From positions 1 to 40,930 of the forward strand of contig CALUFQ010000029.1 in the NCBI GenBank assembly GCA_944319925.1: a DNA stretch of 40,930 nucleotides. The letters are read 5' to 3'. The first letter of the stretch is position 1; the number at the start of each line of letters is the position of its first letter. Position numbers and translations under genes: made by a program. The notes below the pieces were generated by a model. That model did no database searches, had not been told where the DNA came from, and was given only the letters and a program-made list of their open reading frames with translations. The stretch comes from an uncultured Paraprevotella sp. (GTDB taxonomy: Bacteria > Bacteroidota > Bacteroidia > Bacteroidales > Bacteroidaceae). This document shows, piece by piece, positions 16,375-36,104 of this stretch.

Positions 16375-18201
16375 CTAACGTTTAATTGAATTTTCCATTT
16401 TGTTGATTACGTCCGTGGCCGCTGTATAAATCTTGTCCATGGCCTGCGCCGGGTCACCGGGCGCATAACGTGCGAACTCGCATTCGTTCATCGTGTCCAC
16501 CAACGCCTTCACCACCTCTTCACCGGCTCCTTTGGCCAAAAGTTTCTCGCGGATGTTGTCCTTGTTCAGTTCGGCCACGGCGATGTCCAGCTTGTCACCG
16601 GCATATCCCCATAAAGCCTTCAACACCTCATCGTAGAAATCCCCGGGACGGTTGGCATTCAGAAGCGCGGCGGCCTGTTTCAGACGTTTGGAGGCCATCT
16701 TGTTGGCCTTCTTATTGCGCATCTTGGCCACGTTGGCACTCTCCAACGCTTTCTTGCGGAACACCACGGCCAACCCCAGACAAAGCAGGAAGGGAATGAC
16801 ATAGCCCCACACGTAACCGGCCGTGCCAAAGAAAGCCTCACCCTTAGGACGCAAGGGCACATCGCCCAAATGAATGTAGCGGATGTCGGAAGCCAACAAT
16901 TCCACGTCCTCCTTGTTCGTGTAGTTCACACTCTGCCCTCCGGTATTCTTCCCTTTGGCCACTTCCACGTCAAAGCTCTCCGTGCGGACAGTCTTATAAG
17001 CTTTCTCACCCGTGTCGAAATAACAGAACTCCACTGCAGGCACCGTATATTTCCCCGCGTGGCGCGGCACTGCCAGATAGTCGAACACCTTGTTCCCGGA
17101 CACGCCGTTGCGCCCCACCTTGGTCTTGTCGGTGATTTTGGCATCATAGGTTTCAAAGTCTTTCGGGAACTTCACCACGGGTGCCTTCATCAGTTTCATG
17201 TTCCCGTTGCCGGACACCGTGACACGCAGCGTCAACGCGTCGTTGGCCTTGATGTCTTTCGGAGTCAGCGAGGCACTGACATTGAAACTGCCCACCGCAC
17301 CCGAATAATTGGCCGGTTTCGGAGTAGGCAGCGGTTCAACCTGCAACGTGAGCGACGGTGCCACGATGGTCTTGCGAACCTCCACCATCGTACTCCCGCC
17401 GTTGAAGAAAGCATCTATCGGGTCGATATTCCTGTTTTGCTGAATCACGATGCCCTCGAACTTAATGGAAGGTATGGTCAGTTTTCCGCTCCGCTGCGGG
17501 AACAAGACGTATTGCCGCCACACGACCGTGCCATAATTGCGGCCGTTGTGCCGCTCCATCTTCAAGCTCTTCTGCTGCGGAAGCTCAATCTCCTGCACAT
17601 GGAAGCCGTCCAAGTCCGGCATGCCTCCGGCCAACTGCGAAAGGTTGACCAAAGAATATACCTTATAGGTAAGCACCACAGCTTCCTGTTCATAAATCTG
17701 TTTCTTGTCGGCCGTGACCGTAATGAACAAGTCTTTTCCTGTGATTTTCGTGCCGGCGTCCTGCATTTGCATCCGACCTCCTTGGGTGCCGCCGCGTCCG
17801 CCTTGGCCGCTTCCGCCACCACTTCCAGGCAAGACTTTTATCTGTAACGTGTTAGAACGGTATTGTTTCCCCTCCACAGTGGCTGTGACTGAAGGAATCG
17901 TGTAGTCACCCGCCTTCAATGCGCTCAATATATAGGTATAAGTGATTGAACTGCTTTGCGTGGTGCGCCCGTTAATCATCTGAAAACTAGACTGGGAAGA
18001 ACGGCTAGGTCCCATGTCAATGCTGAACCCCTTCAACTCGGGCAATCGGAAGTTGCTCACGTCTTGGGAGTTTATCGTGAAACTCAGGCGGAACTGCTCA
18101 CCCTCTTCCACGACATCCGGTGCCGACGCCTTGATTTGTATGGCCGCCCGGGCACACACCCCCAACCAACATAACCAAAATATCAATACGTATCTCTTCA
18201 T
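16375..18201 (-). CDS. batD: BatD oxygen-tolerance protein
   Basis: This 608-residue protein has a signal peptide, several beta-sandwich repeats typical of BatD (VVEEGEQFRLSFTIN at the start), a Gly/Gln-rich linker around residues 126-150 and one transmembrane helix about residues 465-485 (YVIPFLLCLGLAVVF). A cytoplasmic helical C-terminus follows. It is expected to span the inner membrane with most of its mass in the periplasm. BatD is conserved with BatA, B, C and E and its molecular activity is unknown. Confidence 0.9.
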   Translation of the reverse strand: MKRYVLIFWLCWLGVCARAAIQIKASAPDVVEEGEQFRLSFTINSQDVSNFRLPELKGFSIDMGPSRSSQSSFQMINGRTTQSSSITYTYILSALKAGDYTIPSVTATVEGKQYRSNTLQIKVLPGSGGGSGQGGRGGTQGGRMQMQDAGTKITGKDLFITVTADKKQIYEQEAVVLTYKVYSLVNLSQLAGGMPDLDGFHVQEIELPQQKSLKMERHNGRNYGTVVWRQYVLFPQRSGKLTIPSIKFEGIVIQQNRNIDPIDAFFNGGSTMVEVRKTIVAPSLTLQVEPLPTPKPANYSGAVGSFNVSASLTPKDIKANDALTLRVTVSGNGNMKLMKAPVVKFPKDFETYDAKITDKTKVGRNGVSGNKVFDYLAVPRHAGKYTVPAVEFCYFDTGEKAYKTVRTESFDVEVAKGKNTGGQSVNYTNKEDVELLASDIRYIHLGDVPLRPKGEAFFGTAGYVWGYVIPFLLCLGLAVVFRKKALESANVAKMRNKKANKMASKRLKQAAALLNANRPGDFYDEVLKALWGYAGDKLDIAVAELNKDNIREKLLAKGAGEEVVKALVDTMNECEFARYAPGDPAQAMDKIYTAATDVINKMENSIKR

Positions 18202-18230
18202 AATCCTCTGCTATGTTTTTTACCACCTCT

Positions 18231-18965
18231 TTACCATTGTTTCTCCAGCCTTCTGCGCTGCGGCCGTTCCGCCGCTTTCTTGATGCGCTCCTGCGTCTGC
18301 TTCTCTTCCTGCATGGCTGCGTTCAGGAGCTGCTCGGCCGTTTCCTTTGACATATTGTCCTGATTCTGCTGTTGTGGCTGCTGTTGCTCGTCTTTCTTGT
18401 CCTTATCCTGGTCCTGCTCTTTTTTCTGTTGCTTGTTATCTTGTTTCTGGTCTTGGCCGTCCTTGTCCTGCTGGTCTTTTTCCTGCTGCTGGTCTTGTTG
18501 CGGATTGTTCTTCAGCTGATGCTGGCACAGCACCAAGTTGTAACGGCTCTCATTGTCCGCCGGATTCCTCCGCAGCGCATTCTTGTAGCACTCTATCGCA
18601 GGGCCGAACTGCTTTTGGCTCTGCAAAATCACACCCATGTTATGGTATATTGAGGCCAATCGTCCCTTGTTGGTTTCCACCTTGACCGCATCCTCGTATG
18701 CCTGCATGGCTTCCTTGGGCTTTTGCTGCCTCAAGAGGGCGTTGCCCAAGTTGAAATAAGCTTGCGGCATCCGCCCGTCGGCCTCTATCGCTTTCCGGTA
18801 ATCCACTTCGGCTTCGGTGTACATGCTGTCACGATACAGGCGGTTTCCGCTCCTCAGGTAATCGCGCCCCGCCTTTTCTTGCGCGAACGAAGAAACAGCC
18901 ACCACACAAAGGCAGAAGGCAATGCCCCACTTCCACACCAAACGAAACATATTCCTATTCCTCAT
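18231..18965 (-). CDS. batC: BatC TPR protein with Gln/Lys/Asp-rich tail
   Basis: This 244-residue protein has a signal peptide (ending SSFAQ), three to four TPR units (about 35-155, with YFNLGNALLRQ and IYHNMGVILQSQ) and a highly charged low-complexity segment of Gln, Lys and Asp (about 155-205), then a short helical tail. TPR units suggest protein-protein assembly in the Bat complex. Its ATG overlaps the batB stop by 4 bases, implying translational coupling. The low-complexity tract is encoded by repetitive codons and could vary in length between strains. Confidence 0.88.
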   Translation of the reverse strand: MRNRNMFRLVWKWGIAFCLCVVAVSSFAQEKAGRDYLRSGNRLYRDSMYTEAEVDYRKAIEADGRMPQAYFNLGNALLRQQKPKEAMQAYEDAVKVETNKGRLASIYHNMGVILQSQKQFGPAIECYKNALRRNPADNESRYNLVLCQHQLKNNPQQDQQQEKDQQDKDGQDQKQDNKQQKKEQDQDKDKKDEQQQPQQQNQDNMSKETAEQLLNAAMQEEKQTQERIKKAAERPQRRRLEKQW

Positions 18966-19993
18966 TTCCGAAACAATTTTATTCCCTTGAACAATGGATT
19001 CTTCCGCTCAATCATGCACACTTCAAGTATCAGGAAGAACAAGGCGAGCAAAGCCACGGCCTGGAACTGCTCGTCGTACTCAGAAAACACCTTGCTTTCC
19101 ATCTCCGTCTTGCCCAACTTGTCCACATATCCCGACAACTGCTCCTGTGCGGAGGAACTGTTGTCCACATAAATGTATGCACCTTGCCCCGCCGCAGCAA
19201 TGTCGCGGCACATCTGTTCGTTCAGCTTGGACACCACCACGTTCCCGCTGTTGTCCACAATGTATTGCGAGCCACCGCCCGGCATGGGAATCGGCGCACC
19301 CTGCGGAGAACCGATGCCGAGCACATACACTTTGATTCCTTTTTCCGCAGCCGCCTTGGCCATTTCCATGGCACCGCCTTCGTTGTCCTCACCGTCCGTA
19401 ATGACAAAAATGGCCTTGCTCGCCTGCTGGTTGGGCGTGAAACTTTTCATCGCCAGGTCTATGGCCTGCTTGATGTCCGTGCCTTGGGTGGAAATCATCT
19501 CTGGGGAAATCGTCTCCAAAAACATCTTGGCCGACACGTAGTCGCTCGTAATGGGCAACTGCGTGTAAGCCTCCCCGGCATACACAATCAAACCGATTTT
19601 ATCGTCTGTCATCTTGTCCACGATGCTGCTCACCAGCATCTTGGCTTTCTCCAAACGGTTGGGAGTCACGTCCTCGGCCAACATGGAATTGGAAATGTCC
19701 ATTGCAATGATAGCTTCGATTCCCTGCCGCTTGCGCGTCTCTTCTTTCGTGCCGAACTGCGGGCGGGCCAACGCAAAAACCAGCATGGCAAAAGCAAAAA
19801 GCATCAGCCACGTCTTCACCTCCCGGCGCACCGCCGACACATCGGGCATCAACTCTTTCAACAGGCCGGCATCCCCGTAACGGGCCAGCCTCCGCTTACG
19901 ATAATAATTCGTGGCATAGTGCAGCCCTGCCAGCAGCGGAACAAGCAGAAGCAAATACAAATATAATGGTTCTTCAAAACGGAACATAGGCAA
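18962..19993 (-). CDS. batB: BatB von Willebrand factor A membrane protein
   Basis: This 343-residue protein has two N-terminal transmembrane helices (about 10-27 and 60-78), a VWA domain with the MIDAS metal site (DISNSM near residue 97) and a C-terminal helix (VALLALFFLILEV). VWA domains bind protein ligands through a divalent metal. Together with BatA and the MoxR ATPase it resembles MoxR/VWA chaperone-like modules. It lies 6 bases after batA. BatA and BatB are clearly paralogous (shared SMLAED and IGLxxxAGEAxTQ segments). Confidence 0.92.
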   Translation of the reverse strand: MPMFRFEEPLYLYLLLLVPLLAGLHYATNYYRKRRLARYGDAGLLKELMPDVSAVRREVKTWLMLFAFAMLVFALARPQFGTKEETRKRQGIEAIIAMDISNSMLAEDVTPNRLEKAKMLVSSIVDKMTDDKIGLIVYAGEAYTQLPITSDYVSAKMFLETISPEMISTQGTDIKQAIDLAMKSFTPNQQASKAIFVITDGEDNEGGAMEMAKAAAEKGIKVYVLGIGSPQGAPIPMPGGGSQYIVDNSGNVVVSKLNEQMCRDIAAAGQGAYIYVDNSSSAQEQLSGYVDKLGKTEMESKVFSEYDEQFQAVALLALFFLILEVCMIERKNPLFKGIKLFRK

Positions 19994-19999
19994 AACTGA

Positions 20000-21001
20000 T
20001 TATGGGATTCTCTTCAATATCGTCATGCGCAACAGCATCTCCAACAGCAAGCTTACGACCGCAATCCACGCAAACAAGGCGTATGCCTCGTAACGCTTGC
20101 TATATTGCTTGACATTCAATTTCGTTTTCTCCAATTTGTCTATATCCTTATAGACCTCCTCCAACTTCTTATTATCTGTGGCACGGTAAAACTCCCCGTC
20201 GGTCTTCCCGGCGATGGCGGCCAACGTCTTGGTGTCGATTTCCACAGGAACGTTCAAATACTGCACCCCGCCGGCCACGGGCATCGGATAAGGGGCCAAC
20301 CCGTTGGTGCCCACACCAATCGTATAAACCCTCACGCCGAAACTTTTGGCAATCTCGGCTGCCATCATGGGCGAAATGTCGCCGGCATTGTTCGTCCCGT
20401 CCGTCAACAGGATGACCACCTTGCTCTTGGCCTTGCTATCCTTCAGGCGCGACACGGCATTGGCAATACCCATGCCCACAGCCGTGCCGTCTTCTATCAT
20501 GCCCGTTTGCGCCATATCCGTCTGCAGGCCATGGAAAAGGTTCAGCAACACGGCATGGTCTGTCGTCATCGGGCACTGCGTGAAAGCCTCACCCGCAAAG
20601 ATGGTCAGGCCGATATTGTCGTTCGGGCGGCCGGCTATAAATTCCGAAGCCACCTGCTTGGCGGCCTCCAGACGGTTCGGTTTCAAGTCCTCGGCCAACA
20701 TGCTGGTGGACACATCGACAGCCAGCATGATGTCAATGCCCTCCACTTGTGTGTCCTTCCAGCTGTTGCTCGTCTGCGGCCGGGCCAATACCACGACTAT
20801 CATGACAAACGTGACCAGACGCAAGATGAACGGCGCATGAATCAAATGATTCTTGTAACTCTTAGGCGCATAGCGGTAGGCCGTCGTGTCAGGCACCTGC
20901 AAGGTAGGCTCCTTCCGTTTGTTCTTGAGCACATACCATAATATATAAGGTATAAGCAAGAACAGCAAAAAGAAATATTCTATATTCGCAAACGTCATCA
21001 T
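20000..21001 (-). CDS. batA: BatA von Willebrand factor A membrane protein
   Basis: This 333-residue paralogue of BatB has an N-terminal membrane anchor, a second helix near residue 60, the MIDAS motif DVSTSM (near residue 97) and a C-terminal transmembrane helix (YALFAWIAVVSLLLEML). It is expected to pair with BatB in the inner membrane with the VWA domain free to bind partners. It starts 9 bases after the preceding operon gene. Confidence 0.92.
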   Translation of the reverse strand: MMTFANIEYFFLLFLLIPYILWYVLKNKRKEPTLQVPDTTAYRYAPKSYKNHLIHAPFILRLVTFVMIVVVLARPQTSNSWKDTQVEGIDIMLAVDVSTSMLAEDLKPNRLEAAKQVASEFIAGRPNDNIGLTIFAGEAFTQCPMTTDHAVLLNLFHGLQTDMAQTGMIEDGTAVGMGIANAVSRLKDSKAKSKVVILLTDGTNNAGDISPMMAAEIAKSFGVRVYTIGVGTNGLAPYPMPVAGGVQYLNVPVEIDTKTLAAIAGKTDGEFYRATDNKKLEEVYKDIDKLEKTKLNVKQYSKRYEAYALFAWIAVVSLLLEMLLRMTILKRIP

Positions 21002-21010
21002 TCTCTGTAT

Positions 21011-22114
21011 TTATGCAATTAACTCGAAGATCATCCAACAAAGCCACACCAACAAAGCCACACCGGCCAACGTAGCCCCTGCCAAACCAACCCGCATGCC
21101 CAACAACGTGCGGCGGCTGCGCTTCTGCTCCACCACAACCTCGTCTGGCACGGCCTGCACCTTGGGGTCGGCCTCCACCTTGGTTTGGTTGATAAACTCT
21201 ATCGCATTCACCAAGTTCGCGTCATTCTCATTAATCAGGGTGCTGTACTTGGCAAACTTCACTAAGTCGGCCGTCTGGAACAACGAGCGCAACTCATCGA
21301 GGCTCTCCGTATTCTCCGTCAACAGATGGTCTATGATTTCGGCAGAAGTCATTTCCATGGCGTTGAATCCATAACGCTTCTCAATGTAAGTACGCAAAAT
21401 GGACGTCAGGCGCGTATAATACTCTTTCGAGTCTTCCTTCGCCCACGCCTTCTCCGCTTTCATCTGGTCGATTTCCTGCATGGCCTTGGTGTGAGGCAAA
21501 ACTTTTGGCGCGAGCTTGATAATCTTAATAATAGGCTTGTTGTCGCGATAACGGACATAAAAATAAGCCAGCAGAAGCGTCCACAAAAGCAAGACCACCG
21601 ACAACCAAAATATCGGCGACCAATCCGCCCAGGAGAACGGCACTTTCATGATTTCCTTCGGCCCATAGAACTGGTCGGTATGCACCGTGTCAACGGGAAT
21701 GGACAATACGCGGAGAGCCAAATTCTTCGATTGGTATTCTTTTCCATCCACTTTCACCACGAAAGGTGGAAGATAGTAGAGGGCAGAATCAAACGACGTC
21801 ACGTTGTAACGCTGAGAGACCAACACCCTCGCATTCTCATTCAAATGCTGCGTGTCGGCCTTGGCCACATCCACAATCTCCACTCCCGGCGTGAGCATGT
21901 CGCCCGCCTTGAATTGCGGAAGCACCAATTTGGACTTGGCATCCGCGCTCACTTCCAATGTGATATGGGTCTGTTCCCCCACAAAAAGCTCAAGGGAATC
22001 TATCCTTGCATCCACGGTGACCTGCGCCTGCCCGCCGCCACAGGCAAATCCTATCATCGCCCATAACGCCGCCACGCGGCACAACCACCCGTATTTACGA
22101 TTATTACTCATCAT
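21011..22114 (-). CDS. Bat-operon conserved membrane protein, function unknown
   Basis: This 367-residue protein has a signal peptide (about 1-30), a BatD-like beta domain (VDARIDSLELFVGEQTHITL), a transmembrane helix (about 168-187), a cytoplasmic helical region with basic patches and a second helix at the C-terminus (AGATLAGVALLVWLCW). In Bacteroidales bat operons this position, between the DUF58 gene and batA, is regularly occupied by such a protein. I assign no activity. Gaps of 3 bases upstream and 9 downstream place it firmly in the operon. Confidence 0.75.
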   Translation of the reverse strand: MMSNNRKYGWLCRVAALWAMIGFACGGGQAQVTVDARIDSLELFVGEQTHITLEVSADAKSKLVLPQFKAGDMLTPGVEIVDVAKADTQHLNENARVLVSQRYNVTSFDSALYYLPPFVVKVDGKEYQSKNLALRVLSIPVDTVHTDQFYGPKEIMKVPFSWADWSPIFWLSVVLLLWTLLLAYFYVRYRDNKPIIKIIKLAPKVLPHTKAMQEIDQMKAEKAWAKEDSKEYYTRLTSILRTYIEKRYGFNAMEMTSAEIIDHLLTENTESLDELRSLFQTADLVKFAKYSTLINENDANLVNAIEFINQTKVEADPKVQAVPDEVVVEQKRSRRTLLGMRVGLAGATLAGVALLVWLCWMIFELIA

Positions 22115-22117
22115 TGC

Positions 22118-22987
22118 TTAACTTCGTTTGGCAAACAAGGTCTTCAGCGAAGACACGTAATCCTGGTCTGTGCGGATTGAAACCGAATCGACATTGCTCT
22201 TGGCAAAGACATCCTGCAACACACTTTGCCTGTTCCGCCACCACTCACGATGCGCCTGGCGCACCTTGCGGCTCGAAGTGTCAATATACTGCTCGTGCCC
22301 GGTCTCCGCGTCGTGTACCTTCATCAGCCCCACGTCCGGCAATTCGGCCATACGGCGGTCAAACACCTGAATCGCCACCACGTCGTGCTTCTGGTTGGCC
22401 ACAGTCAATGCCGTCTGGTAATCTTTCCGGTCGATAAAGTCGCTCATGAGGAAAGCCGTGCAACGCCGTTTGATGGCCTGCGTCAAATATTCCACCGCCT
22501 GCCCCACATCTGTCAACCGGCTTTGAGGCTTGAAATCCAATAGTTCACGGATGATGCGGAGAATGTGCTTCCGCCCTTTCTTGGGCGGAATGAACTCCTC
22601 AATCCTGTCTGAAAAGAAGATGACACCGATTTTATCATTGTTTTGGATGGCCGAAAAAGCCAATGTCGCCGCGATTTCCGTCACCATATCCCGTTTGGTT
22701 TGGGAAACTGTGCCGAAATTCAGACTGCCAGACACGTCAATCAGCAACATGACAGTCAGTTCCCTCTCCTCTTCGAACACCTTCACGAAAGGACGGTTGA
22801 AACGGGCCGTCACGTTCCAGTCTATATCCCGGATATCATCGCCATACTGATACTCGCGCACTTCGGAAAAGGCCATACCTCTCCCTTTGAACGCCGAATG
22901 GTATTCTCCGGCAAAGATATTGTTGGACAGCCCCCTCGTCTTGATCTCGATTTGGCGGACCCGCTTCAAAATCTCACTCGTATCCAT
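22118..22987 (-). CDS. DUF58 domain protein of the moxR-bat operon
   Basis: This 289-residue cytoplasmic protein has the DUF58 signature with GDDIRDIDWNVTAR near residue 50, followed by a VWA-like fold with LIDVSGSL around residue 85 and later IGVIFFSDRIEEF. DUF58 proteins are almost always encoded next to a MoxR AAA+ ATPase and are thought to be its partner or substrate adaptor. It lies 15 bases after moxR. Confidence 0.9.
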   Translation of the reverse strand: MDTSEILKRVRQIEIKTRGLSNNIFAGEYHSAFKGRGMAFSEVREYQYGDDIRDIDWNVTARFNRPFVKVFEEERELTVMLLIDVSGSLNFGTVSQTKRDMVTEIAATLAFSAIQNNDKIGVIFFSDRIEEFIPPKKGRKHILRIIRELLDFKPQSRLTDVGQAVEYLTQAIKRRCTAFLMSDFIDRKDYQTALTVANQKHDVVAIQVFDRRMAELPDVGLMKVHDAETGHEQYIDTSSRKVRQAHREWWRNRQSVLQDVFAKSNVDSVSIRTDQDYVSSLKTLFAKRS

Positions 22988-23002
22988 ACCGGCACCACGC
23001 CA

Positions 23003-23998
23003 TTAAGGCACTTCCACCTTGTTCAAAATCTGACTGATGATTTCCTCGCTCGTGACGTTGTTGGCTTCAGCCTCGTATGACAATCCGATGCGGTGTCTGA
23101 GCACGTCGTGCGCCACGGCGCGCACATCCTCCGGAATCACATAGCCACGGCGTTTGATGAAAGCATACGCCCGGGCTGCCAACGCCAAATTGATGGAAGC
23201 GCGCGGCGAACCACCGAATTCAATGTAATTCTTCAAATCCTTCAACCCGTATTGGTCCGGGAAACGGGTCGCAAACACGATGTCGGCAATGTATTGCTCA
23301 ATTTTTTCGTCCAAATAAACTTCGCGCACCACGTTTCTTGCGGCCAAAATCTCATTGGTTCCCATAATAGGCCGCACCGTCGTCTTTTCGCCCGTAATCT
23401 GCTGGCGGATGATTTTCTTCTCCTCTTCCAGTTTCGGATAATCAATGATGACTTTCAGCATGAAGCGGTCAACCTGCGCTTCCGGCAACGGATAGGTTCC
23501 TTCCTGCTCGATTGGGTTCTGCGTGGCTAACACAAGGAAAGGTTCGGGCAACTTATAAGTTTCCTTACCAATGGTCACCTGCCGTTCCTGCATCGCTTCA
23601 AGCAAAGCACTCTGTACCTTGGCCGGGGCGCGGTTGATTTCATCCGCAAGGACGAAATTGGCAAAAATAGGGCCGCGCTGGGCAACGAAAGTCTCGTCCT
23701 TCTGGCTATACATCATCGTGCCTATCACATCGGCGGGCAACAAGTCCGGCGTGAACTGCACCCGGCTGAACTGGCCGTCAATCAAAGAGGCCAGCGTTTT
23801 GATGGCCAAGGTCTTTGCCAACCCCGGCACACCTTCCAGCAACACGTGCCCGTCGCTCAACAAACCTATCAAAAGAGACTCCACCAAATGCTTCTGCCCC
23901 ACGATTACCTGGTTCATTCCAGTCACCAAATTCGTCACAAAAGCACTCTGCTTTTCGATTCGCTCGTTCAACTCGCGAATATCTATCGCTTCAGCCAT
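23003..23998 (-). CDS. MoxR-family AAA+ ATPase
   Basis: This 331-residue ATPase has Walker A GVPGLAKT at 56-63, Walker B with LADEINRAP and the sensor region ATQNPIEQEGTYPLPEAQ-DRF typical of MoxR. Family members act as chaperone-like ATPases that mature VWA-containing proteins. The first gene of a nine-gene operon (moxR, DUF58, unknown, batA, batB, batC, batD, batE, PAP2), it has a clear promoter upstream. Confidence 0.94.
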   Translation of the reverse strand: MAEAIDIRELNERIEKQSAFVTNLVTGMNQVIVGQKHLVESLLIGLLSDGHVLLEGVPGLAKTLAIKTLASLIDGQFSRVQFTPDLLPADVIGTMMYSQKDETFVAQRGPIFANFVLADEINRAPAKVQSALLEAMQERQVTIGKETYKLPEPFLVLATQNPIEQEGTYPLPEAQVDRFMLKVIIDYPKLEEEKKIIRQQITGEKTTVRPIMGTNEILAARNVVREVYLDEKIEQYIADIVFATRFPDQYGLKDLKNYIEFGGSPRASINLALAARAYAFIKRRGYVIPEDVRAVAHDVLRHRIGLSYEAEANNVTSEEIISQILNKVEVP

Positions 23999-24133: not shown

Positions 24134-25657
24134 TTAACGGCGTTTTAATTCCAATTTGGGCATTTTCAGCACCATGCCTTCCGGCACGACATCCGGATTG
24201 GCTATTTGATTATACGTCACAATATACACTGTGAAATTTTTAGAACCATAATAGCGCAATGCCAGCCCGCGCAACGTCTCGCCACGGCGCAGGCGATATT
24301 CTTCTTGCGTACCCACAATTTCGTATGCACCATTCTTGACTTGCGGATAAACGTCTTCTTTCTTGGGCGGGGCAGCCTTCACGGCTGGACGCGACACCTC
24401 CTCATTGGGTGGCAAACTGTCACGCACGGCGTTGTGAATCGTGTCGGGTTTCCCCTTTTGCAGTGAATCCGCGACAGCCTCTCCGCTCGCGTCCGCGCCA
24501 ACTCTCTCCGGCTTTGCCGGCACTGTTTTCTCCGGCACTCTTTTCACTTCCGCTTTGGCCAACAAATGATGATAACCCACATAATAACTGAGTCCCATCA
24601 ATGCCGCCACAAACAACACAAGGAAAAACATCATCCACGGGGTCAGATAAATCCGTTTGCGCCCGTCGTTCGGCAACATTTGGACAATATGCTGGTTATT
24701 CACGGTCTGGTGCTCCACTTTCTGCACCTCAATCTGTTGCTTTTCCACATGCACATCGCGGACTTCCGCCTGTGACAAGCCTCCATTCCCGCTTTCATCC
24801 TCTTTTGAACACGGGACAGACCCGGAAACTCCGCCCGCAGCTTGCTCCGCCCCGTCTGCGGCTTCCTCCACGTCTTTCGTTTTTTCCCCCGGCATGTCCT
24901 CCCCTTCTTCCGCCGGCTGTTCCATCTGCGTCGGTTCCGCAACAGCCTCTTCCGGCTTCACGACAGGTGCTTCCGCCGTTTCTTCCGGTTCCTGCTCCAT
25001 TTCCCCGGCAACCAGGCCGAGCGTATCCGACCCGTCTCCTGTCCCGTCCACCTCTTCTTGGACATTGTCCGGCACGTCATCCTGCACGTCCTGTGTCTCC
25101 TCACCATCTATTCTCGGGTCATCCCCTTCTTCTATCGAAGCCGACTCGATTGGCACTTCGTCCACCGCCCCTTCCGGAAGGAATGCGATGTCATCCTCTT
25201 CTTTCACGCCACTTGGCGCGACCGTTTCCGTTTCACCCCCTTCGACAAGAATCTGGCCGGTTTCGTTTTCCGGAGCTTCTTCCTCCGTCCAATCCGGCAT
25301 ATCCATCCGCTCCATGTCCTCCAACTTCGTGCTTTCATACAAGACTACTGTCTCGAATTGGGCAAAAGGCTTGTTGACCGCATCCCGCAACACGGGGTCC
25401 GGCGTAAAATTAACCTTCGTATATTCCTTGATCGTGATTCGTTCCCCGGTGTTCACGTCCACGCTCTCCCGGCTGTCCACCGTCACCAGCTTGAATGTCC
25501 CCAGTCCTCGGACTTTTACCATTTTTTCTGTCTGAAGGAATTCACCAATCACGTCAAAAGCCGCCCGCAAGAAGACCTCCGCATCCTTCTTCGGGATGTC
25601 CCTTCTCCGCGCGATTCCGTCCGCCAAATCCTGCAATAAGACTTTTTTATCCATCAC
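24134..25657 (-). CDS. Membrane-spanning HU-domain / LysM fusion protein
   Basis: This 507-residue protein combines an N-terminal HU/IHF domain (about 1-95, with VKVRGLGTFKL and VNFTPDPVLRDAVN), a long acidic linker (about 110-300, dominated by Glu and Asp), one transmembrane helix (about 338-361, preceded by DGRKR) and a C-terminal LysM domain (about 450-500, GETLRGLALRYYG ... NPDVVPEGMVLKMP). The positive-inside rule puts the HU domain in the cytoplasm and LysM in the periplasm, so it could bridge DNA and peptidoglycan. That topology is my inference; DNA and glycan binding have not been shown here. Related proteins occur across Bacteroidales. It is downstream of rimO and a stand-alone HU gene. 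Confidence 0.85.
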   Translation of the reverse strand: MMDKKVLLQDLADGIARRRDIPKKDAEVFLRAAFDVIGEFLQTEKMVKVRGLGTFKLVTVDSRESVDVNTGERITIKEYTKVNFTPDPVLRDAVNKPFAQFETVVLYESTKLEDMERMDMPDWTEEEAPENETGQILVEGGETETVAPSGVKEEDDIAFLPEGAVDEVPIESASIEEGDDPRIDGEETQDVQDDVPDNVQEEVDGTGDGSDTLGLVAGEMEQEPEETAEAPVVKPEEAVAEPTQMEQPAEEGEDMPGEKTKDVEEAADGAEQAAGGVSGSVPCSKEDESGNGGLSQAEVRDVHVEKQQIEVQKVEHQTVNNQHIVQMLPNDGRKRIYLTPWMMFFLVLFVAALMGLSYYVGYHHLLAKAEVKRVPEKTVPAKPERVGADASGEAVADSLQKGKPDTIHNAVRDSLPPNEEVSRPAVKAAPPKKEDVYPQVKNGAYEIVGTQEEYRLRRGETLRGLALRYYGSKNFTVYIVTYNQIANPDVVPEGMVLKMPKLELKRR

Positions 25658-25666
25658 CCATCCATG

Positions 25667-25939
25667 TTATTGCATTTTCTCCTTAAAAGAAGCCGTGGGT
25701 TTAAAACCGATAATCAGTTTCGGGGGTACCAACATTCGTTGTTGGGTTGCCGGGTTCACCACCACGCGCTCCTGTTTTTTCTTCACCTCGAACGAACCGA
25801 AATTTTGCACGGACACGATGTTCTCGTCTTCCAATTGCGCCGTCATCTCCGCCACCAACGCACTGATTAACGACGAAGTGTCTTTCATCGTATAGCCCAT
25901 GCGCCTCGAAAGTTCTGCTACAAATTCCCTATTATTCAT
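25667..25939 (-). CDS. HU/IHF family DNA-binding protein
   Basis: This 90-residue HU-type protein has VSVQNFGSFEVKKK and the C-terminal GFKPTASFKEKM segment. I start it at the ATG at 25939 instead of the in-frame ATG at 25951, because AGGAAAACC immediately upstream gives a ribosome binding site. Its start overlaps the end of rimO by 8 bases. It lacks the usual basic arm end (VVNPATQQRM instead of RNPxTG-rich), so DNA specificity may differ. It is followed 9 bases later by the HU-LysM gene, suggesting that the two HU domains may be co-produced, perhaps as partners. Confidence 0.87.
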   Translation of the reverse strand: MNNREFVAELSRRMGYTMKDTSSLISALVAEMTAQLEDENIVSVQNFGSFEVKKKQERVVVNPATQQRMLVPPKLIIGFKPTASFKEKMQ

Positions 25940-27251
25940 GGTTTTCCTCATTGTTTACCCGGACTGCATAAAGATCAAAATCGTCTGTGTCCGTCACTTT
26001 AACCCGATAAAAATTCCCAATCTCCAAATTCCCGTCGGATACAGGCACCAGCACCTCTGGGTCCACTTCGGGAGAATCAAACTCCGTCCGACCCACATAA
26101 TAATCCCCCTCTATCCGATCTATGATGACCTTGAATGTCTGACCGACTTTCCGCGCCGTCAATTCAGCCGAAATTTTTTGTTGCAAGGCCATCAGTTTGT
26201 CCAGCCTGGCCTGCTTGGTCTCTGCGGGAATCTCATCCTTGTAGTGCTCCGCCGAATAAGTCCCTTCTTCCTCCGAATAGGCAAACGCGCCCATACGGTC
26301 GAACTTCGCCTCGCGGACAAAATCAAGCAACTCCGCAAAATCCGCCTCCGTTTCTCCCGGATGCCCCACCATCAACGTTGTGCGCAAATGGATTCCCGGC
26401 ACCTCTTTGCGGAAACGTGCCAGCAATTCGTAAGTCTGCCGTTTGTCCACGTGGCGGTGCATCATTTGCAGCATACGGTCGCTGATGTGCTGCAAGGCTA
26501 TGTCCATGTATTTGCACACATTCGCCCGTTCCCGCATCACGCGGAACAAGTCTTCCGGGAAATTGGCAGGATACGCGTAATGCAAGCGAATCCATTCCAC
26601 GCCCGGCACATCGGATATCCGCTCCACCAATTCCGGCAACATTTGTTTGTGGTACAAGTCCTGGCCGTAGTAAGTCAGTTCCTGGGCAATGACTTGAAAT
26701 TCCTTCACGCCACGCGCCACCAGCATCCTCACTTCCTCCACGATTTCCTCCATCGGGCGGGAAACATGGTGACCCGTGATAATCGGTATCGCACAATAGG
26801 AACAATGGCGGTCGCACCCTTCCGAAATCTTCAAATACGCATAATGCGGGGGAGTCGTCAGCTTGCGCTCCAAAGCCAACTCCGGATGATAGACTTTCCC
26901 CAGGTCGGCCAACAGCCCGTCCCAATCAAATTTCCCGTAAAATTTGTCCACTTGGGGAATCTCCTCCCCCAGCTCTTTCAAATAACGTTCCGAAAGACAT
27001 CCCATGACATAGAGTTTCTTGAGCCGGCCTTCTTCCTTGGCTTGGCAAAACTCCAGAATCATATTGACGCTTTCTTCCTTGGCATCGCCGATAAAGCCAC
27101 AAGTATTAATCACGGCTATCTCCCCTTCGGGTTCTTCGGCATCATGCGTCACCTTGTATCCATTGGCCTCCAATTGCCTCATCAGCCTTTCCGAATCCAC
27201 TAGGTTCTTGGAACAGCCCAACGTGATGACATCAATCGTATTCTTCTGCAA
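25932..27251 (-). CDS. rimO: Ribosomal protein S12 methylthiotransferase
   Basis: RimO is a radical-SAM enzyme that adds a methylthio group to the conserved aspartate of ribosomal protein S12. The 439-residue protein has the N-terminal [4Fe-4S] cysteines Cys13, Cys51 and Cys85, the radical-SAM triad Cys146, Cys150 and Cys153 (CDRHCSYC), and a C-terminal TRAM domain (about 375-435). The ITLGCSKNLVDSE start is characteristic of RimO rather than MiaB. It is 26 bases downstream of ftsY. Confidence 0.95.
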   Translation of the reverse strand: MQKNTIDVITLGCSKNLVDSERLMRQLEANGYKVTHDAEEPEGEIAVINTCGFIGDAKEESVNMILEFCQAKEEGRLKKLYVMGCLSERYLKELGEEIPQVDKFYGKFDWDGLLADLGKVYHPELALERKLTTPPHYAYLKISEGCDRHCSYCAIPIITGHHVSRPMEEIVEEVRMLVARGVKEFQVIAQELTYYGQDLYHKQMLPELVERISDVPGVEWIRLHYAYPANFPEDLFRVMRERANVCKYMDIALQHISDRMLQMMHRHVDKRQTYELLARFRKEVPGIHLRTTLMVGHPGETEADFAELLDFVREAKFDRMGAFAYSEEEGTYSAEHYKDEIPAETKQARLDKLMALQQKISAELTARKVGQTFKVIIDRIEGDYYVGRTEFDSPEVDPEVLVPVSDGNLEIGNFYRVKVTDTDDFDLYAVRVNNEENHE

Positions 27252-27277: not shown

Positions 27278-28240
27278 CTATTGCTTATTATCTCCAAAAA
27301 GCGAATCCACAAAGGCCTTACGGTTGAACGGCTGCAAGTCTTCCATCCCTTCGCCCAGGCCGATGTAGCGCACCGGTATCCTGAATTGGGCGGAAATACC
27401 GATTACCACACCGCCTTTGGCCGTGCCGTCGAGTTTCGTAATCGCCATGCTGGTCACATCCGTGGCCAGCGTGAACTGCTTGGCCTGTTCGTAGGCATTC
27501 TGCCCCGTACTGCCGTCGAGCACCAGCATCACGTCGTGCGGAGCATCCGGCACCACCTTCTGCATCACCCGTTTAATTTTGGACAATTCGTCCATCAGTC
27601 CTTTCTTGTTATGCAGCCGTCCGGCGGTGTCTATCAGCACCACGTCCGCGTCATTCGCCACGGCCGAGCTCAACGTGTCGAATGCCACCGAAGCCGGGTC
27701 GCTCCCCATCTGTTGTTTCACGATGGGCACTCCCACACGTCCGGCCCATATTTCCAATTGTTCCACGGCTGCCGCGCGAAACGTGTCCGCAGCACCAAGA
27801 TAAACTTTCTTCCCTGCCTTTTTGTATTGGTAGGCCAGTTTCCCGATGGTAGTGGTCTTACCCACGCCGTTCACGCCGACCACCATAACCACGTATGGCT
27901 TTTTCCCTTGCGGAATGTCGAAACCTTCCGTGTCACCCGTGTTGTTTTCCGTGAGCAACGATGCGATTTCATCCCGCAGGATACCGTTCAGTTCCGTCGT
28001 GGTCACATATTTGTCGCGCGCCACGCGCTTTTCAATCCTATTGATGATGTCCAGCGTCGTATCCACACCGACATCCGAAGTGACCAACACTTCCTCCAAG
28101 CTATCCAGGACCTCATCATCCACTTTCGATTTTCCGGCCACGGCGCGTGTCAGCTTCCCGAAAAAACTTTCTTTTGTCTTTTCCAGCCCCTTGTCCAGCG
28201 TTTCTTTCTTTTCTTTCGAGAAAAAGCTAAAAAATCCCAT
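27278..28240 (-). CDS. ftsY: Signal recognition particle receptor FtsY
   Basis: FtsY docks ribosome-SRP complexes at the inner membrane for co-translational targeting. The 320-residue protein is the short form: a brief N-terminal charged stretch with no long acidic A domain, an NG domain with P-loop GVNGVGKTTTIGKLA (about 121-135), DTFRAAAVEQL and DTAGR motifs, and TKLDGTAKGG near the C-terminus. It has a -7 box (28270-28277) of its own after the terminator of the rpmB operon, and leads ftsY-rimO-HU-HU/LysM. Confidence 0.96.
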   Translation of the reverse strand: MGFFSFFSKEKKETLDKGLEKTKESFFGKLTRAVAGKSKVDDEVLDSLEEVLVTSDVGVDTTLDIINRIEKRVARDKYVTTTELNGILRDEIASLLTENNTGDTEGFDIPQGKKPYVVMVVGVNGVGKTTTIGKLAYQYKKAGKKVYLGAADTFRAAAVEQLEIWAGRVGVPIVKQQMGSDPASVAFDTLSSAVANDADVVLIDTAGRLHNKKGLMDELSKIKRVMQKVVPDAPHDVMLVLDGSTGQNAYEQAKQFTLATDVTSMAITKLDGTAKGGVVIGISAQFRIPVRYIGLGEGMEDLQPFNRKAFVDSLFGDNKQ

Positions 28241-31777: not shown

Positions 31778-33028
31778 TTACCCGTTCCCCAGCACCGGAC
31801 ACCCTTGCTGCAACCGCCTCAGGCGGAGCAAAGCCTCGTAATAATAATAGTCGGCATAGACGATGGATGCGTCAATCTCGCTGCCCGCCGGATGATGGCC
31901 CGTGCTGTGCAGGAGAAACGACACGCAACGGTCGCCACTCTGGTAACTTTTCCCCAAGGAGGCCAGCATCTGTTCTGCTGCCTCACGATATTGCGTACCC
32001 TTCTCCGGCGAAACGTAGCCGGAAAGTTCCAACAGGGCGGAAGCCACCACGCAAGCCGCCGAAGCGTCCTTGGGCGCGGAGGGCGACGGGTCGTCGAAAT
32101 CCCACAGGGGCACCCAGTCGTCCGAACGCTCGGGAAGGCGTTTCAAATAGATGTCTGTCACCTTCTGCGCGAAAGCGAGGAAACGGGGGTCGCGTGTCTC
32201 ACGATAGACCATCGTATAACCGTAAATCGCCCACGACTGGCCGCGCGCCCACATTGAGCGGTCGGAATAGCCCTGATGGGTCACACCCTTGATGAAACCG
32301 CCCGTAATCGTGTCATATACCGCCACGTGGTAACACGAACCGTCTTCACGGAAATGGTGCTCCATTGTGGTCTCGGCATGGCGCACGGCAATGTCATACA
32401 AATCCTGGCTTCCGCCGTTGCGCGATGCCCAAAAAAGCATCTCCAGGTTCATCATGTTGTCCATGATGGTGTTGTGCGGCCAACCTTGCTTCTCCACCTC
32501 GCGCGGCCAACTCAGGATGGTGCCCACACGGGGATTGAAGAGCCGTGCCAATTGCCCCGCCGTGCCCACGATAATGTCGCGATAGGCAGCCGACGGGTCT
32601 ATGCGCATACCGTTGCCGAAGCTGCAATAAACCAGGAAGCCCAAATCGTGGTCATAAGGGTCACGGTCGGCCAAGTAACCAAGCGAAGCCGTGTAGTTAC
32701 GCGCCTGACGACCGACGTAAGCCTCCCCGCTGTACTCATAATCATACCACAAGATGCCCGGCCAAAAACCGCCGCACCACTCTTCGGGCGTGGCCGGACG
32801 GCAATTCCACTCCGTACGACCCTGCTGCAAATCTTCGGCAAGGATGTTGCGCGGCATTTGCGTATAGTCCCAGCCGCCGTTCTCCTTAAGCCCGTCCAGC
32901 GCACGCGCCACCTGGCGGTGGCAGTAGGCCAAATCCCTTTCCACGTCCACGCGCTGCGCCTGTCCCGCCACGGGACAAACCAACACGGCGCACAACAAGC
33001 CCCACAAACCGCTTCTAATCTTCTTCAT
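31778..33028 (-). CDS. GH88 unsaturated glucuronyl/galacturonyl hydrolase
   Basis: This 416-residue protein has a signal peptide (about 1-25) and the GH88 alpha/alpha barrel. Conserved features include WCGGFWPGILWYDYEYS, HDLGF with Asp128 and IMDNMMNLE with Asp190, corresponding to the two catalytic-site aspartates of characterised enzymes, then GQSWAIYGYTM. Such enzymes hydrate the unsaturated uronic acid that polysaccharide lyases leave at chain ends of pectin, alginate-like or glycosaminoglycan oligomers. No lyase is present in this window. It is 27 bases downstream of the MFS gene in the same operon. Confidence 0.9.
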   Translation of the reverse strand: MKKIRSGLWGLLCAVLVCPVAGQAQRVDVERDLAYCHRQVARALDGLKENGGWDYTQMPRNILAEDLQQGRTEWNCRPATPEEWCGGFWPGILWYDYEYSGEAYVGRQARNYTASLGYLADRDPYDHDLGFLVYCSFGNGMRIDPSAAYRDIIVGTAGQLARLFNPRVGTILSWPREVEKQGWPHNTIMDNMMNLEMLFWASRNGGSQDLYDIAVRHAETTMEHHFREDGSCYHVAVYDTITGGFIKGVTHQGYSDRSMWARGQSWAIYGYTMVYRETRDPRFLAFAQKVTDIYLKRLPERSDDWVPLWDFDDPSPSAPKDASAACVVASALLELSGYVSPEKGTQYREAAEQMLASLGKSYQSGDRCVSFLLHSTGHHPAGSEIDASIVYADYYYYEALLRLRRLQQGCPVLGNG

Positions 33029-33055
33029 GCCTTTTCTTGTTTCAAAAAATATGAA

Positions 33056-34222
33056 TCAACGTGCGGTTTTCACCCCAAACGCACAGAACGTCAGGTAAAA
33101 CGCGCAAATCAACAACACACAAACCCCGGCCGTGATGCCCGCCGCGTCAGTGGCCGCACCAATCAACGGTGTCACTGCCCCGCCACCGGCCACCGCCGTA
33201 ATCATCAACCCGGAAATCAGGTTGGCCTTCTCCGGCAAATGCTGCACGGCCATGGAATAGATGATGGCGAAAATACAAGAGCAGAAGAAACCGATGCCTC
33301 CCACGCACACCAGGTCCACCGTGGCATTCTCATAGAAAGCCAGCACGAGCACGGCGACAATCGCCAACAGGATATTGATGCGGTAATACTTCATCTCGGA
33401 CATTTTCGTCATGATGAACACACCCAGGAACGCGCCCACCGTGCGACAGATGAAATACACCTGCGGGGCAATGCCGGCCTGTTCCGTATCCCACCCGAAA
33501 CGCAGTATCATGACCTTTGAACTGATGAAATTGGTGGCCACGTCAATACCCACCACGAAAAAGATGCCGAAAAAGAGCAACAGGATGGTGCGGTCGGACA
33601 ACAGTCCCAACACCTTGCCCACCGTCACGCCAGTGTCTTCCTTCTTTTCATGGGGTATGGGGGTAAAGTAAAGCCACAAGGCCGATACCAGCGTGATGGC
33701 ACCCAGTACGGGAAAAGCCAAATACCAATTGTCCTTGTCGCCGCCACCCAGCACGTCCACGGCAAAAAGCATGATGAACGGGCCGCAGAAAGAAGACACG
33801 GCCTTCACCACCTGGCCCGCCGTCAGGCTGCTGGTGAGCAGTTTCTGGTCGGTCACCACATTGTTCAGCAACGGATTGAGCGACACTTGCAGAATGGCAT
33901 TTCCAATACCTAGCAAGGCGTAGCCGACAAGGCAAGCCCAAGGTGTCTGCAACAAAGGAATGGCCATGCCTACCAACGTGACAACCATGCTGAGCATGAC
34001 CGTGTTTTTCCGTCCCCAGCTGTTCATCTTGATGCCCACGGGGATGCTGAAGAACAAAAACCAGATAAATACCATCGAAGGCACGAAACCCGCCATCGTG
34101 TGGCTCCAGCCAAACGCTTCGCGCGCATAATCGGAAGAGATGCCCACGATGTCGCAAAAGCCCATCACGAAAAACCCGAACAAGACTGGCAGGATGGCCC
34201 ACACAGAAGTTTGTTTTTTCAT
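33056..34222 (-). CDS. MFS sugar transporter (FucP/FHS type)
   Basis: This 388-residue inner-membrane protein has about twelve hydrophobic helices and an FHS-like layout: an FGFFVMGFCDIVG first helix, SIPVGIKMNSWGRK between helices 2 and 3, GIGNAILQVSLNPLL, and a C-terminal VQHLPEKANLISGLMITAVAGGG segment. FHS carriers are proton symporters for monosaccharides such as fucose or glucose. Between GH43 and GH88 it likely imports a released sugar, perhaps L-arabinose or a uronic acid; the substrate is not readable. Confidence 0.88.
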   Translation of the reverse strand: MKKQTSVWAILPVLFGFFVMGFCDIVGISSDYAREAFGWSHTMAGFVPSMVFIWFLFFSIPVGIKMNSWGRKNTVMLSMVVTLVGMAIPLLQTPWACLVGYALLGIGNAILQVSLNPLLNNVVTDQKLLTSSLTAGQVVKAVSSFCGPFIMLFAVDVLGGGDKDNWYLAFPVLGAITLVSALWLYFTPIPHEKKEDTGVTVGKVLGLLSDRTILLLFFGIFFVVGIDVATNFISSKVMILRFGWDTEQAGIAPQVYFICRTVGAFLGVFIMTKMSEMKYYRINILLAIVAVLVLAFYENATVDLVCVGGIGFFCSCIFAIIYSMAVQHLPEKANLISGLMITAVAGGGAVTPLIGAATDAAGITAGVCVLLICAFYLTFCAFGVKTAR

Positions 34223-34266
34223 ATACGTCTTTTTTTATCCATTAATAAATACTTTTCCACATTCAC

Positions 34267-35955
34267 TCATGGTGTCACACGAAACCAATCCACGTCCATC
34301 CAGCCACGGTTGACCGCAGGCTCGGCATGTGGTTCCACACACACGAAACCCACCTTCGCGCCAATCCACTTGCCTTGCCGCGCCTGGAAAGGCTCACCGC
34401 AGGCCGTGAACTTCTCCCCGTCGAGACTATAGGCGAAACGGCACTTTCCGCCCGCCTCCACCAGCACCCTGAGATAAATCTCACGACTCACCGTAGGCGA
34501 ATAGATGATGGTCTGCCGGGCGGAAGGGGTAAAACTCGACAACTCGCGCACGGTCTCCTTGCCGCCTTGCTCCGCGTCCTGGCAAGTGCGCTGGCAGAGC
34601 AAGAATTTGTCTCCTTCGCGCCGCACGGTCAAGGCCGAGTAGTCCCACCCCATCACAATCAATCCACCTTCCTGCCCGTCCTCCTTGCTCACCATGGTCA
34701 CCTTCGTCGTGGCCGTGAAAGCCTCGGCCGGGAACTTCTGGAGCAACAAGTTGGAAGCCTCCCAAAGGTTCACATATTTTTTCGACACAGGCCAGGAATA
34801 AAGCCGCATATAGCCATATGGAGTGGTAAAGCCGTACAAATCATGATAATTGGAATGCCATTCCCATTGCAACCCCAAATCCACCGTGTTGAACTCGTCG
34901 CTTTCCGCCGGATTGACGATTTTGGAAAAAGGCACGGAAGGCTTTCGCCAGGTAAGCACGGGATTGCCGCAACCGTCGCCGTCCTTGTCCTCGCCAATGA
35001 CCGGCCATCCGTCCACCCACTTCATCGGTTCGAGCCATACCACGCGGCCATAGCATCCCTTGTCCTGGAAGTGCATGAACCAATCTTCGCCGGATGCTGT
35101 CCGCACCCAGCCGCCCTGGTGGGGGCCGTTCACCGGCGTGTCGCCCTGCTCCAGCACACGCCGGGCCTCATAGGGGCCATACACGTTCTTGCTGCGGGCC
35201 GCCATCTGCCACCCCATCTCCACACCTCCTGCGGGGAACATCAAATAATAATATCCGTCTCTTTTATAAAACTTCGGGCCTTCAGCCGTGTGGTTCACGT
35301 CATCGTTCCCGTCATACACTATCCGCGCCGGACCGATAACTTTCGTGCCTTCGGCATTCATCTCCGCCACACAAATCACGGAATTGACCTGCGCCCGGCT
35401 GGCCGCCCAAGCAAACGCCAAGTAACAACGCCCGTCCTCGTCCCACAAAGGGCAAGGGTCAATGATGCCCTTGGCTGGCTTGACCAATACCGGCTCCGAC
35501 CATTTTCCGCGCGGGTCGGATGCCTTGACCATATACACGCCGAAATCAGGATCGCCCCAATAAATGTAGAACTCTCCGTTGTGGTAACGGATACTGGGCG
35601 CCCACACGCCCTTGCCATGCCGTGCCACGTCGTAAAACTGCCCGGGCACCACGCGTTGCAAGGCATAGTTCACGATTTCCCAGTTCACCAAGTCCGTGGA
35701 ATGCAGGATGGGCAAGCCGGGCGCACAGGCAAAGCTGGATGCTGTCATGTAGAAGTCGTTCCCCACCGCACAAATGTCCGGGTCGGAATAATCCGCATGA
35801 ATCACAGGATTCTTATATGTGCCGTCACCCAAATCGGGAGACCATACCTTAGACACATAGGCCTGCTCTTGCGCTTCGGCACAAGGCACAATGCACAAAG
35901 TACAGCCCAACAGCCAAAAGGCACCCCTACTAATCGAAAAACTCATTCTCTTCAT
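34267..35955 (-). CDS. GH43 glycosidase with C-terminal beta-sandwich domain
   Basis: This 562-residue protein has a signal peptide (about 1-28), a five-bladed GH43 propeller and a C-terminal concanavalin-like domain (about 350-562, SDEFNTVDLGLQWEWHSNY onwards). The catalytic triad is visible: Asp58 in YSDPD as the base, Asp166 in IIDPCPLW as the pKa modulator, and Glu225 in HTAEGPKF as the acid. The family includes alpha-L-arabinofuranosidases and beta-xylosidases, and the two-domain layout is common in the beta-xylosidase group. It probably leads the GH43, MFS, GH88 transcript, with 44- and 27-base gaps and a GTATGCATAC-like palindrome upstream. Confidence 0.92.
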   Translation of the reverse strand: MKRMSFSISRGAFWLLGCTLCIVPCAEAQEQAYVSKVWSPDLGDGTYKNPVIHADYSDPDICAVGNDFYMTASSFACAPGLPILHSTDLVNWEIVNYALQRVVPGQFYDVARHGKGVWAPSIRYHNGEFYIYWGDPDFGVYMVKASDPRGKWSEPVLVKPAKGIIDPCPLWDEDGRCYLAFAWAASRAQVNSVICVAEMNAEGTKVIGPARIVYDGNDDVNHTAEGPKFYKRDGYYYLMFPAGGVEMGWQMAARSKNVYGPYEARRVLEQGDTPVNGPHQGGWVRTASGEDWFMHFQDKGCYGRVVWLEPMKWVDGWPVIGEDKDGDGCGNPVLTWRKPSVPFSKIVNPAESDEFNTVDLGLQWEWHSNYHDLYGFTTPYGYMRLYSWPVSKKYVNLWEASNLLLQKFPAEAFTATTKVTMVSKEDGQEGGLIVMGWDYSALTVRREGDKFLLCQRTCQDAEQGGKETVRELSSFTPSARQTIIYSPTVSREIYLRVLVEAGGKCRFAYSLDGEKFTACGEPFQARQGKWIGAKVGFVCVEPHAEPAVNRGWMDVDWFRVTP

Positions 35956-35969
35956 AAATTCTCTGTTGC

Positions 35970-35981
35970 AGTATGCATACT
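35970..35981. promoter_or_regulatory. 12-bp palindrome upstream of GH43
   Basis: AGTATGCATACT is a perfect palindrome 15 bases before the GH43 start, within a very AT-rich stretch. No TAnnTTTG box is visible nearby, so this may be an operator or part of a non-standard promoter. Confidence 0.45.
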
Positions 35982-36036
35982 ATAATATACTTTATTTATA
36001 TATACGAACGAACGCGCCCTTTCCCTTGTTTAAGAA

Positions 36037-36077: not shown

Positions 36078-36104
36078 CATACAAATCTGCGAAACCGAAC
36101 TCCG

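What the first reader, a model, noticed from the sequence alone, without database searches (positions are those of the whole stretch)
24134..25657. HU domain on a membrane-spanning LysM protein: possible chromosome-to-wall tether
One protein has an HU-type DNA-binding domain, a long acidic linker, one transmembrane helix and a LysM domain. Positive residues before the helix put HU inside and LysM outside. If both ends bind, the protein would connect the nucleoid with peptidoglycan. Its neighbours are a second HU gene, rimO and ftsY. The domain order is seen in the sequence; the tether is inference.
Basis: partly seen in the sequence, partly recalled or inferred. Interest (0 to 1): 0.75.

Follow-up and report, generated by a model that had tools for sequence, protein, structure and literature searches.

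The report
Membrane-anchored HU pair with wall-binding domain
Gut Bacteroides-type bacteria and a distant group of relatives keep a gene pair that appears to make a DNA-packaging protein dimer with one half anchored through the cell membrane to a domain of the kind that grips the cell wall, a possible but untested link between chromosome and wall.

Summary
The window (Paraprevotella-like) encodes, on the minus strand, an HU/IHF domain, an acidic unstructured linker, one transmembrane helix and a C-terminal LysM-like domain. The start is more likely ATG 25654 than GTG 25657. The architecture recurs across the order (strong HU-profile match in 45 of 295 genomes, 16 families) and in one family of another class of the phylum (40 genomes of a 392-genome sample).

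The main new finding is that the neighbouring small HU gene is part of it. It lies within 75 nt upstream in 160 of 162 non-redundant loci (one has it 315 nt upstream, one is cut off), also in the other class. In two lineages the two genes are fused. I read this as a membrane-anchored, IHF-like heterodimer.

The DNA-intercalating proline is kept by the small HU (158 of 159) but is V/I in the membrane subunit in the order (133 of 134); it is present in the other class (25 of 25). One family has degenerate arms in both halves, so DNA binding is not universal. HU inside and LysM outside is supported by charge bias. Tethering chromosome to wall remains inference. HubP/FimV and the HU-CCDC81–SPOR proteins, one of which is in this genome, are nearest in kind.

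The parts
24134..25657 (-). HU-acidic linker-TM-LysM protein (membrane HU subunit), 507 aa from GTG; likely start ATG at 25654 (506 aa)
25373..25633 (-). HU/IHF domain (PF00216), residues 9-95
25439..25471 (-). DNA-arm segment RESVDVNTGER (residues 63-73); V68 (25454-25456) stands where HU/IHF has the intercalating proline
   Evidence: alignments; counts; role of the proline recalled
25340..25375 (-). Conserved extension after the last HU helix, NKPFAQFETVVL (residues 95-106); kept also where the arm is lost
24668..25327 (-). Acidic, predicted disordered linker (about residues 111-330)
24557..24640 (-). Single transmembrane helix (residues 340-367 of the model), preceded by RKR
24158..24298 (-). 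LysM-like domain (residues 454-500), predicted periplasmic
25667..25951 (-). Small HU (IHF-like) gene, 94 aa as called; homologues begin at MNN, here 25939; likely dimer partner, keeps the NP arm tip
25932..27251 (-). rimO, conserved upstream neighbour within the family and further in the order
27278..28240 (-). ftsY, conserved upstream neighbour within the family and further in the order

Best explanation
The gene pair encodes a membrane-anchored, IHF-like HU heterodimer. The small soluble HU pairs with the HU domain of the membrane protein; the dimer sits in the cytoplasm at the end of a long acidic tether; one helix crosses the inner membrane; and a LysM-like domain in the periplasm holds peptidoglycan. 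DNA is bound mainly through the small subunit's proline-tipped arm, with weaker or altered help from the membrane subunit's arm, so that DNA is held close to the wall at sites chosen by the LysM domain. Shown by sequence: architecture, pairing of genes, gene fusions, arm asymmetry, charge bias at the membrane. Inferred: the heterodimer (my estimate about 0.75), peptidoglycan binding, DNA binding, and the bridge itself. The confidence given is for the whole chain.
For: Small HU within 75 nt upstream in 160 of 162 non-redundant loci with a strong membrane-HU match, within 30 nt in 153; the two others have it at 315 nt (L105) or are cut off just upstream (L150). It is there in 25 of 25 loci of f24, of another class, and in the one f24 locus read at length ftsY and rimO are not near. 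The two genes are fused into one ORF between rimO and moxR in G013, and directly after ftsY-rimO in 4 of 4 f135 genomes examined. The small HU keeps the arm proline in 158 of 159; the membrane subunit has V/I in 133 of 134 of the order and P in 25 of 25 of f24. K/R bias puts the N-terminus inside. AlphaFold HU and LysM blocks at pLDDT mostly 88-97. A read-through model of the pair (pLDDT 86, pTM 0.75) ranks single-chain IHF first and second in the PDB over 189 and 192 columns.
Against: HU domain of the membrane subunit is nearly neutral (median net charge -1 family, -3 order, 0 f24 over the matched stretch; +1 over the first 100 residues in the family); in f24 the small HU is neutral too (median 0). 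f135 fusions have short or altered arms in both halves, and G013's second HU half has no arm at all. LysM scores below Pfam's cut-off in this protein, and LysM structures matched include a potassium-binding protein. TM-score to single-chain IHF is only 0.58-0.59 with rmsd 5.7-7.1; the join is a modelling device, and any two HU domains might be modelled as a dimer. No experiment exists here.
Confidence: 0.48

Rival explanations
1. HubP/FimV-like landmark: the LysM end places the protein in the wall, and the HU heterodimer with its conserved extension is a docking head for other proteins (division, segregation or secretion factors), not a DNA clamp.
For: Same general plan as HubP/FimV: periplasmic LysM, one TM helix, long acidic cytosolic part (passages of PMC8789113; abstract start of PMC12918733 in a listing). 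The first residue of the extension N-x-P-F is kept in 158 of 158, and the extension is there in fusions that lost the arm; near-neutral HU.
Against: The small partner keeps the proline arm in 158 of 159 and f24 keeps both; the arm segment of the membrane subunit is itself conserved, with R62 at 0.99 and 1.00 in the two groups. No TPR/FimV domain found.
Confidence: 0.3
2. Membrane sequestration: the membrane subunit stores or titrates the small HU, and envelope state or proteolysis releases it to change nucleoid structure or transcription.
For: Fixed pairing of a soluble and an anchored HU; long unstructured linker.
Against: Fused versions cannot release the small HU without cutting. I saw no protease or regulator as a constant neighbour, but I looked only for the window's own neighbours and at one f24 locus.
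Confidence: 0.12
3. Chance fusion or mis-called ORF, of no functional meaning.
For: LysM is below Pfam's cut-off in this one protein.
Against: Strong matches in 16 families of the order and in a second class; single intact ORF in the window.
Confidence: 0.02

Closest known systems
HU/IHF heterodimer (IHF alpha/beta; single-chain IHF 2iie)
   Same: HU fold; two different subunits; the sequence profile's best PDB hit is single-chain IHF, and the read-through model ranks it first and second
   Different: One subunit is membrane-spanning with acidic linker and LysM; its arm proline is V/I in the order
HubP / FimV polar landmark proteins
   Same: Periplasmic LysM, one TM helix, long acidic cytosolic part; HubP is named as a polar element of chromosome partition in the abstract start of PMC9140986 (listing)
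   Different: Opposite order (LysM N-terminal there, recalled), cytosolic end is a TPR/FimV domain instead of HU
HU-CCDC81 (PF18174)-TM-SPOR proteins of Bacteroidota; recalled as described by Burroughs and others 2017, which I could not read
   Same: HU-class domain, hydrophobic segment (by eye), peptidoglycan-binding-type domain; one is encoded in this same genome (G000:C67)
   Different: Different HU clade, SPOR instead of LysM; no small HU found by profile in the stretches held around 5 such genes (L031, L227-L230); spread differs: PF18174 over its cut-off mainly in the window's class, in none of f24. Not fully clear-cut: 13 of 26 homologues match the related PF18175 weakly at E<=0.01
HU-HIG (PF18291)
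   Same: HU-like domain fused to other domains
   Different: Score 22.2 bits, below its cut-off 26.2; no wHTH, Ig or Gly-rich part found

Membership tests
HU/IHF superfamily (PF00216) | Profile match over curated cut-off | tested here: met
   63.3 bits against 22.4; 26 of 26 aligned homologues match at E<=0.01; fold match to HU/IHF chains
HU/IHF superfamily (PF00216) | Intercalating proline at the arm tip (role recalled; not every HU-type protein has it, also recalled) | tested here: not met
   V in this protein; V/I in 133 of 134 of the order; met in small HU 158 of 159 and in f24 25 of 25
IHF-like heterodimer | Two different HU subunits forming one dimer | tested here: inconclusive
   Gene pairing and gene fusions; model of the joined pair; no biochemical test possible
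LysM domain proteins (PF01476) | Profile match and LysM fold | tested here: inconclusive
   13.7 bits under cut-off 20.9 for this protein; 12 of 26 homologues match at E<=0.01; PDB LysM hits
LysM domain proteins (PF01476) | Binding to peptidoglycan | not testable with these tools
   Needs a sacculus pull-down
HU-CCDC81-TM-SPOR proteins | HU of CCDC81 type (PF18174) and a SPOR domain | tested here: not met
   No PF18174 or PF05036 hit at E<=1 in the protein; the genome's one PF18174 match is a different gene; weak PF18175 matches in 13 of 26 homologues
HubP/FimV | LysM outside, one TM, acidic cytosolic part | tested here: met
   by sequence and prediction; family description
HubP/FimV | C-terminal TPR/FimV domain, LysM at the N-terminal side | tested here: not met
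   No such Pfam hit; order reversed

The most novel reading that the evidence does not exclude
Bacteroidota carry a dedicated envelope-bound IHF: an HU heterodimer with one subunit threaded through the inner membrane into peptidoglycan, giving a direct nucleoid-to-wall linkage that does the work of a HubP-type landmark, beside a second HU-type tether (HU-CCDC81-SPOR) for the septum in the same cells.
Probability: 0.38. Interest if true: 0.82.

Novelty: new variant of a known kind. Interest (0 to 1): 0.64.

Why it matters
How the nucleoid is positioned relative to the envelope in Bacteroidota, which are major members of the human gut flora, is poorly known (recalled). A conserved pair present in Bacteroides, Prevotella, Phocaeicola and Parabacteroides, annotated only as 'HU family DNA-binding protein' in the two annotated records I saw, would make the question directly testable by gene deletion and microscopy. 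It would also be an HU protein working as a fixed anchor and not as a free packaging protein, and an independent counterpart of what HubP does in vibrios.

Tried and rejected
Chance fusion: rejected by conservation. HU on the periplasmic side: no support; charge bias is the other way in most, with 5 of 108, 2 of 19 and 1 of 25 reversed. A first, cruder flank count gave only 63 of 107 with the N side more positive; the tighter cut is the one I use, and both are told here. Membership in HU-CCDC81-SPOR and HU-HIG: tested, not met. Importance of ftsY/rimO linkage: discounted, because the pair lies elsewhere in the one f24 locus read at length. C-terminal (LysM) profile over the phylum: many hits are short LysM proteins of 80-180 residues without HU, so it was not used for counting. 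Literature: nine searches listed no paper that I recognised as treating this protein; the tenth and last was for HubP. I saw listings, and passages of three papers (PMC8789113, PMC13114119, PMC10434189); none of the passages was seen to concern this protein. Most subscription papers are not held, so absence from print is not claimed. VIA-align was unavailable. No coevolution test of the heterodimer was run: few pairs, and confounded by phylogeny.

Full report
WHAT IS THERE. The frame 24134-25657 (-) encodes 507 residues from GTG; homologues in the genus begin at the next codon, ATG 25654. Pfam gives an HU/IHF domain (PF00216, 63.3 bits, residues 9-95) and a LysM match below cut-off (13.7 bits against 20.9, residues 454-500). 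AlphaFold on an alignment of 26 sequences gives HU and LysM blocks mostly at 88-97, a helix at 340-367 and a linker with pLDDT mostly under 50 (mean of the whole model 63.7). By fold the HU part matches HU and IHF chains. A profile of the last 77 columns finds LysM structures in the PDB, best Ecp6, then the potassium-binding protein Kbp. The linker is 30% acidic and 4.6% basic over 218 residues.

WHERE IT IS. The genome is Paraprevotella-like: the best named hit is Paraprevotella clara, 51%. In the family 91 of 101 genomes match the protein. Of 80 named loci, 75 have HU and the LysM-like end in one ORF (the other 5 show the HU part only), all 80 have the small HU and rimO, 78 ftsY, and 51 moxR within the stretch held. 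Named carriers include Bacteroides, Prevotella, Phocaeicola and Paraprevotella. Two annotated records, Parabacteroides distasonis and Bacteroides finegoldii, show the same order and call both genes 'HU family DNA-binding protein'. With an HU-domain profile (27 rows) the order sample shows a clear gap in score: 45 of 295 genomes have a match of 76 bits or more, 44 of the 45 in a frame of over 300 residues and one in a frame of 156, while the next match is 61 bits in a frame of 97 (my count from its rows). The 45 fall in 16 families. In the phylum sample 45 of 392 genomes match at 65 bits or more: 4 of the own family, 1 other of the order, and 40 of one family, f24, in another class (my count). 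Of the 25 f24 loci taken up, 25 have HU and a TM segment in one ORF, 24 the LysM-like end by profile (L203 not), and 25 the small HU directly upstream.

THE SMALL HU BELONGS TO IT. Over all loci held with a strong membrane-HU match, duplicates removed, 160 of 162 have a small HU within 75 nt upstream on the same strand, 153 within 30 nt; L105 has it 315 nt upstream and L150 is cut off 39 bases upstream of the gene (one search had listed the 159 pairs then held). In the order the pair follows ftsY-rimO where I looked; in the one f24 locus read at length (L238, 12 kb) neither ftsY nor rimO was found, so the link between the two HU genes seems older than the rest of the neighbourhood. In G013 (own family) and in 4 of 4 f135 genomes examined there is no separate small HU: one ORF after rimO carries a small-HU-like part, a second, reduced HU part, a TM segment and the LysM-like end; in G013 and one f135 genome moxR follows. 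The f135 HU parts score low (small-HU profile 11-22 bits; Pfam finds the first in L152 only at E 0.0024 and none in L156), so there the reading rests on position and profile as much as on sequence. In G013 the second HU half lacks the arm entirely. Such fusions are what one expects of two chains that form one dimer.

THE ARMS. In the membrane subunit the residue that stands where HU and IHF have the intercalating proline is V or I in 133 of 134 sequences of the order (one E) and P in 25 of 25 of f24; the small HU has P in 158 of 159. The rest of the arm is conserved in the membrane subunit: R62 (numbered from ATG) 0.99 and 1.00, T69 0.95 and 1.00 in the two groups. The asymmetry points to one full arm and one altered arm per dimer in the order. 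Against DNA binding as a universal function: median net charge of the membrane HU is -1, -3 and 0 in family, order and f24 over the matched stretch, that of the small HU 4.5, 7 and 0 (a cut of the first 100 residues gave +1 for the membrane HU of the family), and f135 has no plain NP tip in either half in the four sequences printed. A short extension after the last helix, N-x-P-F, is kept better than the arm: its N in 158 of 158, and the extension is there in the arm-less fusions too. It may dock the partner or a third protein.

TOPOLOGY. Of 110 family proteins 107 show one hydrophobic segment, 2 none (both cut by a contig end) and 1 two. K+R close to the helix are more on the N side in 81, equal in 22 and fewer in 5 of 108 family proteins; 13, 4 and 2 of 19 in the order; 21, 3 and 1 of 25 in f24 (which left out 2 of 110 and 1 of 20). 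A first, looser count was less clear (63 of 107). Together with the lack of an N-terminal hydrophobic segment this puts HU in the cytoplasm and LysM in the periplasm.

MODEL OF THE PAIR. In the window the two genes are in one frame with one stop between them; 21 other loci of this kind were used. Reading that stop as glutamine, as a device, AlphaFold gave pLDDT 86 and pTM 0.75, and the two best PDB matches were the two single-chain IHF entries, over 189 and 192 columns with TM-scores of 0.58-0.59 and rmsd 7.1 and 5.7. This agrees with an IHF-like dimer but is weak evidence, since unrelated HU pairs might model alike and no control could be run.

COMPARISON. HubP has LysM in the periplasm, one helix, a large acidic cytosolic part and TPRs; its LysM domain is stated to be needed and enough for polar placement (passages of PMC8789113). 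The same plan is stated for HubP and FimV in the abstract start of PMC12918733, seen in a search listing. The protein here has the same layout with an HU head and reversed order. The second relative in kind is the HU-CCDC81-TM-SPOR protein, of which this genome has one (346 aa); no small HU was found by profile in the stretches held around five such genes. I recall that such proteins were described in 2017 with a proposed role in chromosome partition; the paper is not held. PF18174 is over its cut-off in 83 of 392 genomes of the phylum sample, mainly in the window's class and in none of f24, so the two systems are distinct and overlap in the order; against a sharp line, 13 of 26 homologues of the present protein match the related PF18175 weakly.

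VERDICT. The more exact description is a gene pair for a membrane-anchored HU heterodimer. I put the full DNA-to-wall bridge at about one half, a HubP-like docking role at about 0.3, and sequestration at about 0.1.

Noticed in passing
window 5997-6275 (+): A third HU gene, 92 aa, between a gene with HhH-GPD and NUDIX domains (MutY-like) and an RNase E/G gene; by eye its arm reads ARNISKNTT, also without the proline.
   Followed up: partly
L237 4276-5358 (G013, same family): Small HU and membrane HU fused in one ORF; the second HU half lacks its arm and, by eye, its first helix: a natural single-chain candidate for structure work.
   Followed up: yes
L233-L236 (f135, four genomes): Double-HU-TM-LysM fusions next to rimO with degenerate arms in the sequences printed; function may have left DNA.
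   Followed up: partly
G000:C67 (L031 637-1677, -): HU-CCDC81-SPOR protein in the same genome, next to a gene with an FHA-like look (the FHA remark is by eye).
   Followed up: partly
window about 24700-24760 (-): The segment before the TM helix (QQIEVQKVEHQTV..NQHIVQ) is conserved in the genus while the rest of the linker is not; possible docking motif.
   Followed up: no
window 16375-23998 (-): Bat aerotolerance-type cluster (moxR, DUF58, BatD-like; VWA by eye) directly downstream; moxR lies within the stretch held in 51 of 80 named loci.
   Followed up: no
window 31778-38705 and 9738-12917: Arabinan/arabinose-glycan degradation genes: GH43, arabinofuranosidase, GH88, GH127.
   Followed up: no
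NZ_OY725834.1 and NZ_OY725888.1: Two records filed as plasmids carry ftsY and rimO (the second also ribosomal protein genes) and look like pieces of chromosome.
   Followed up: no
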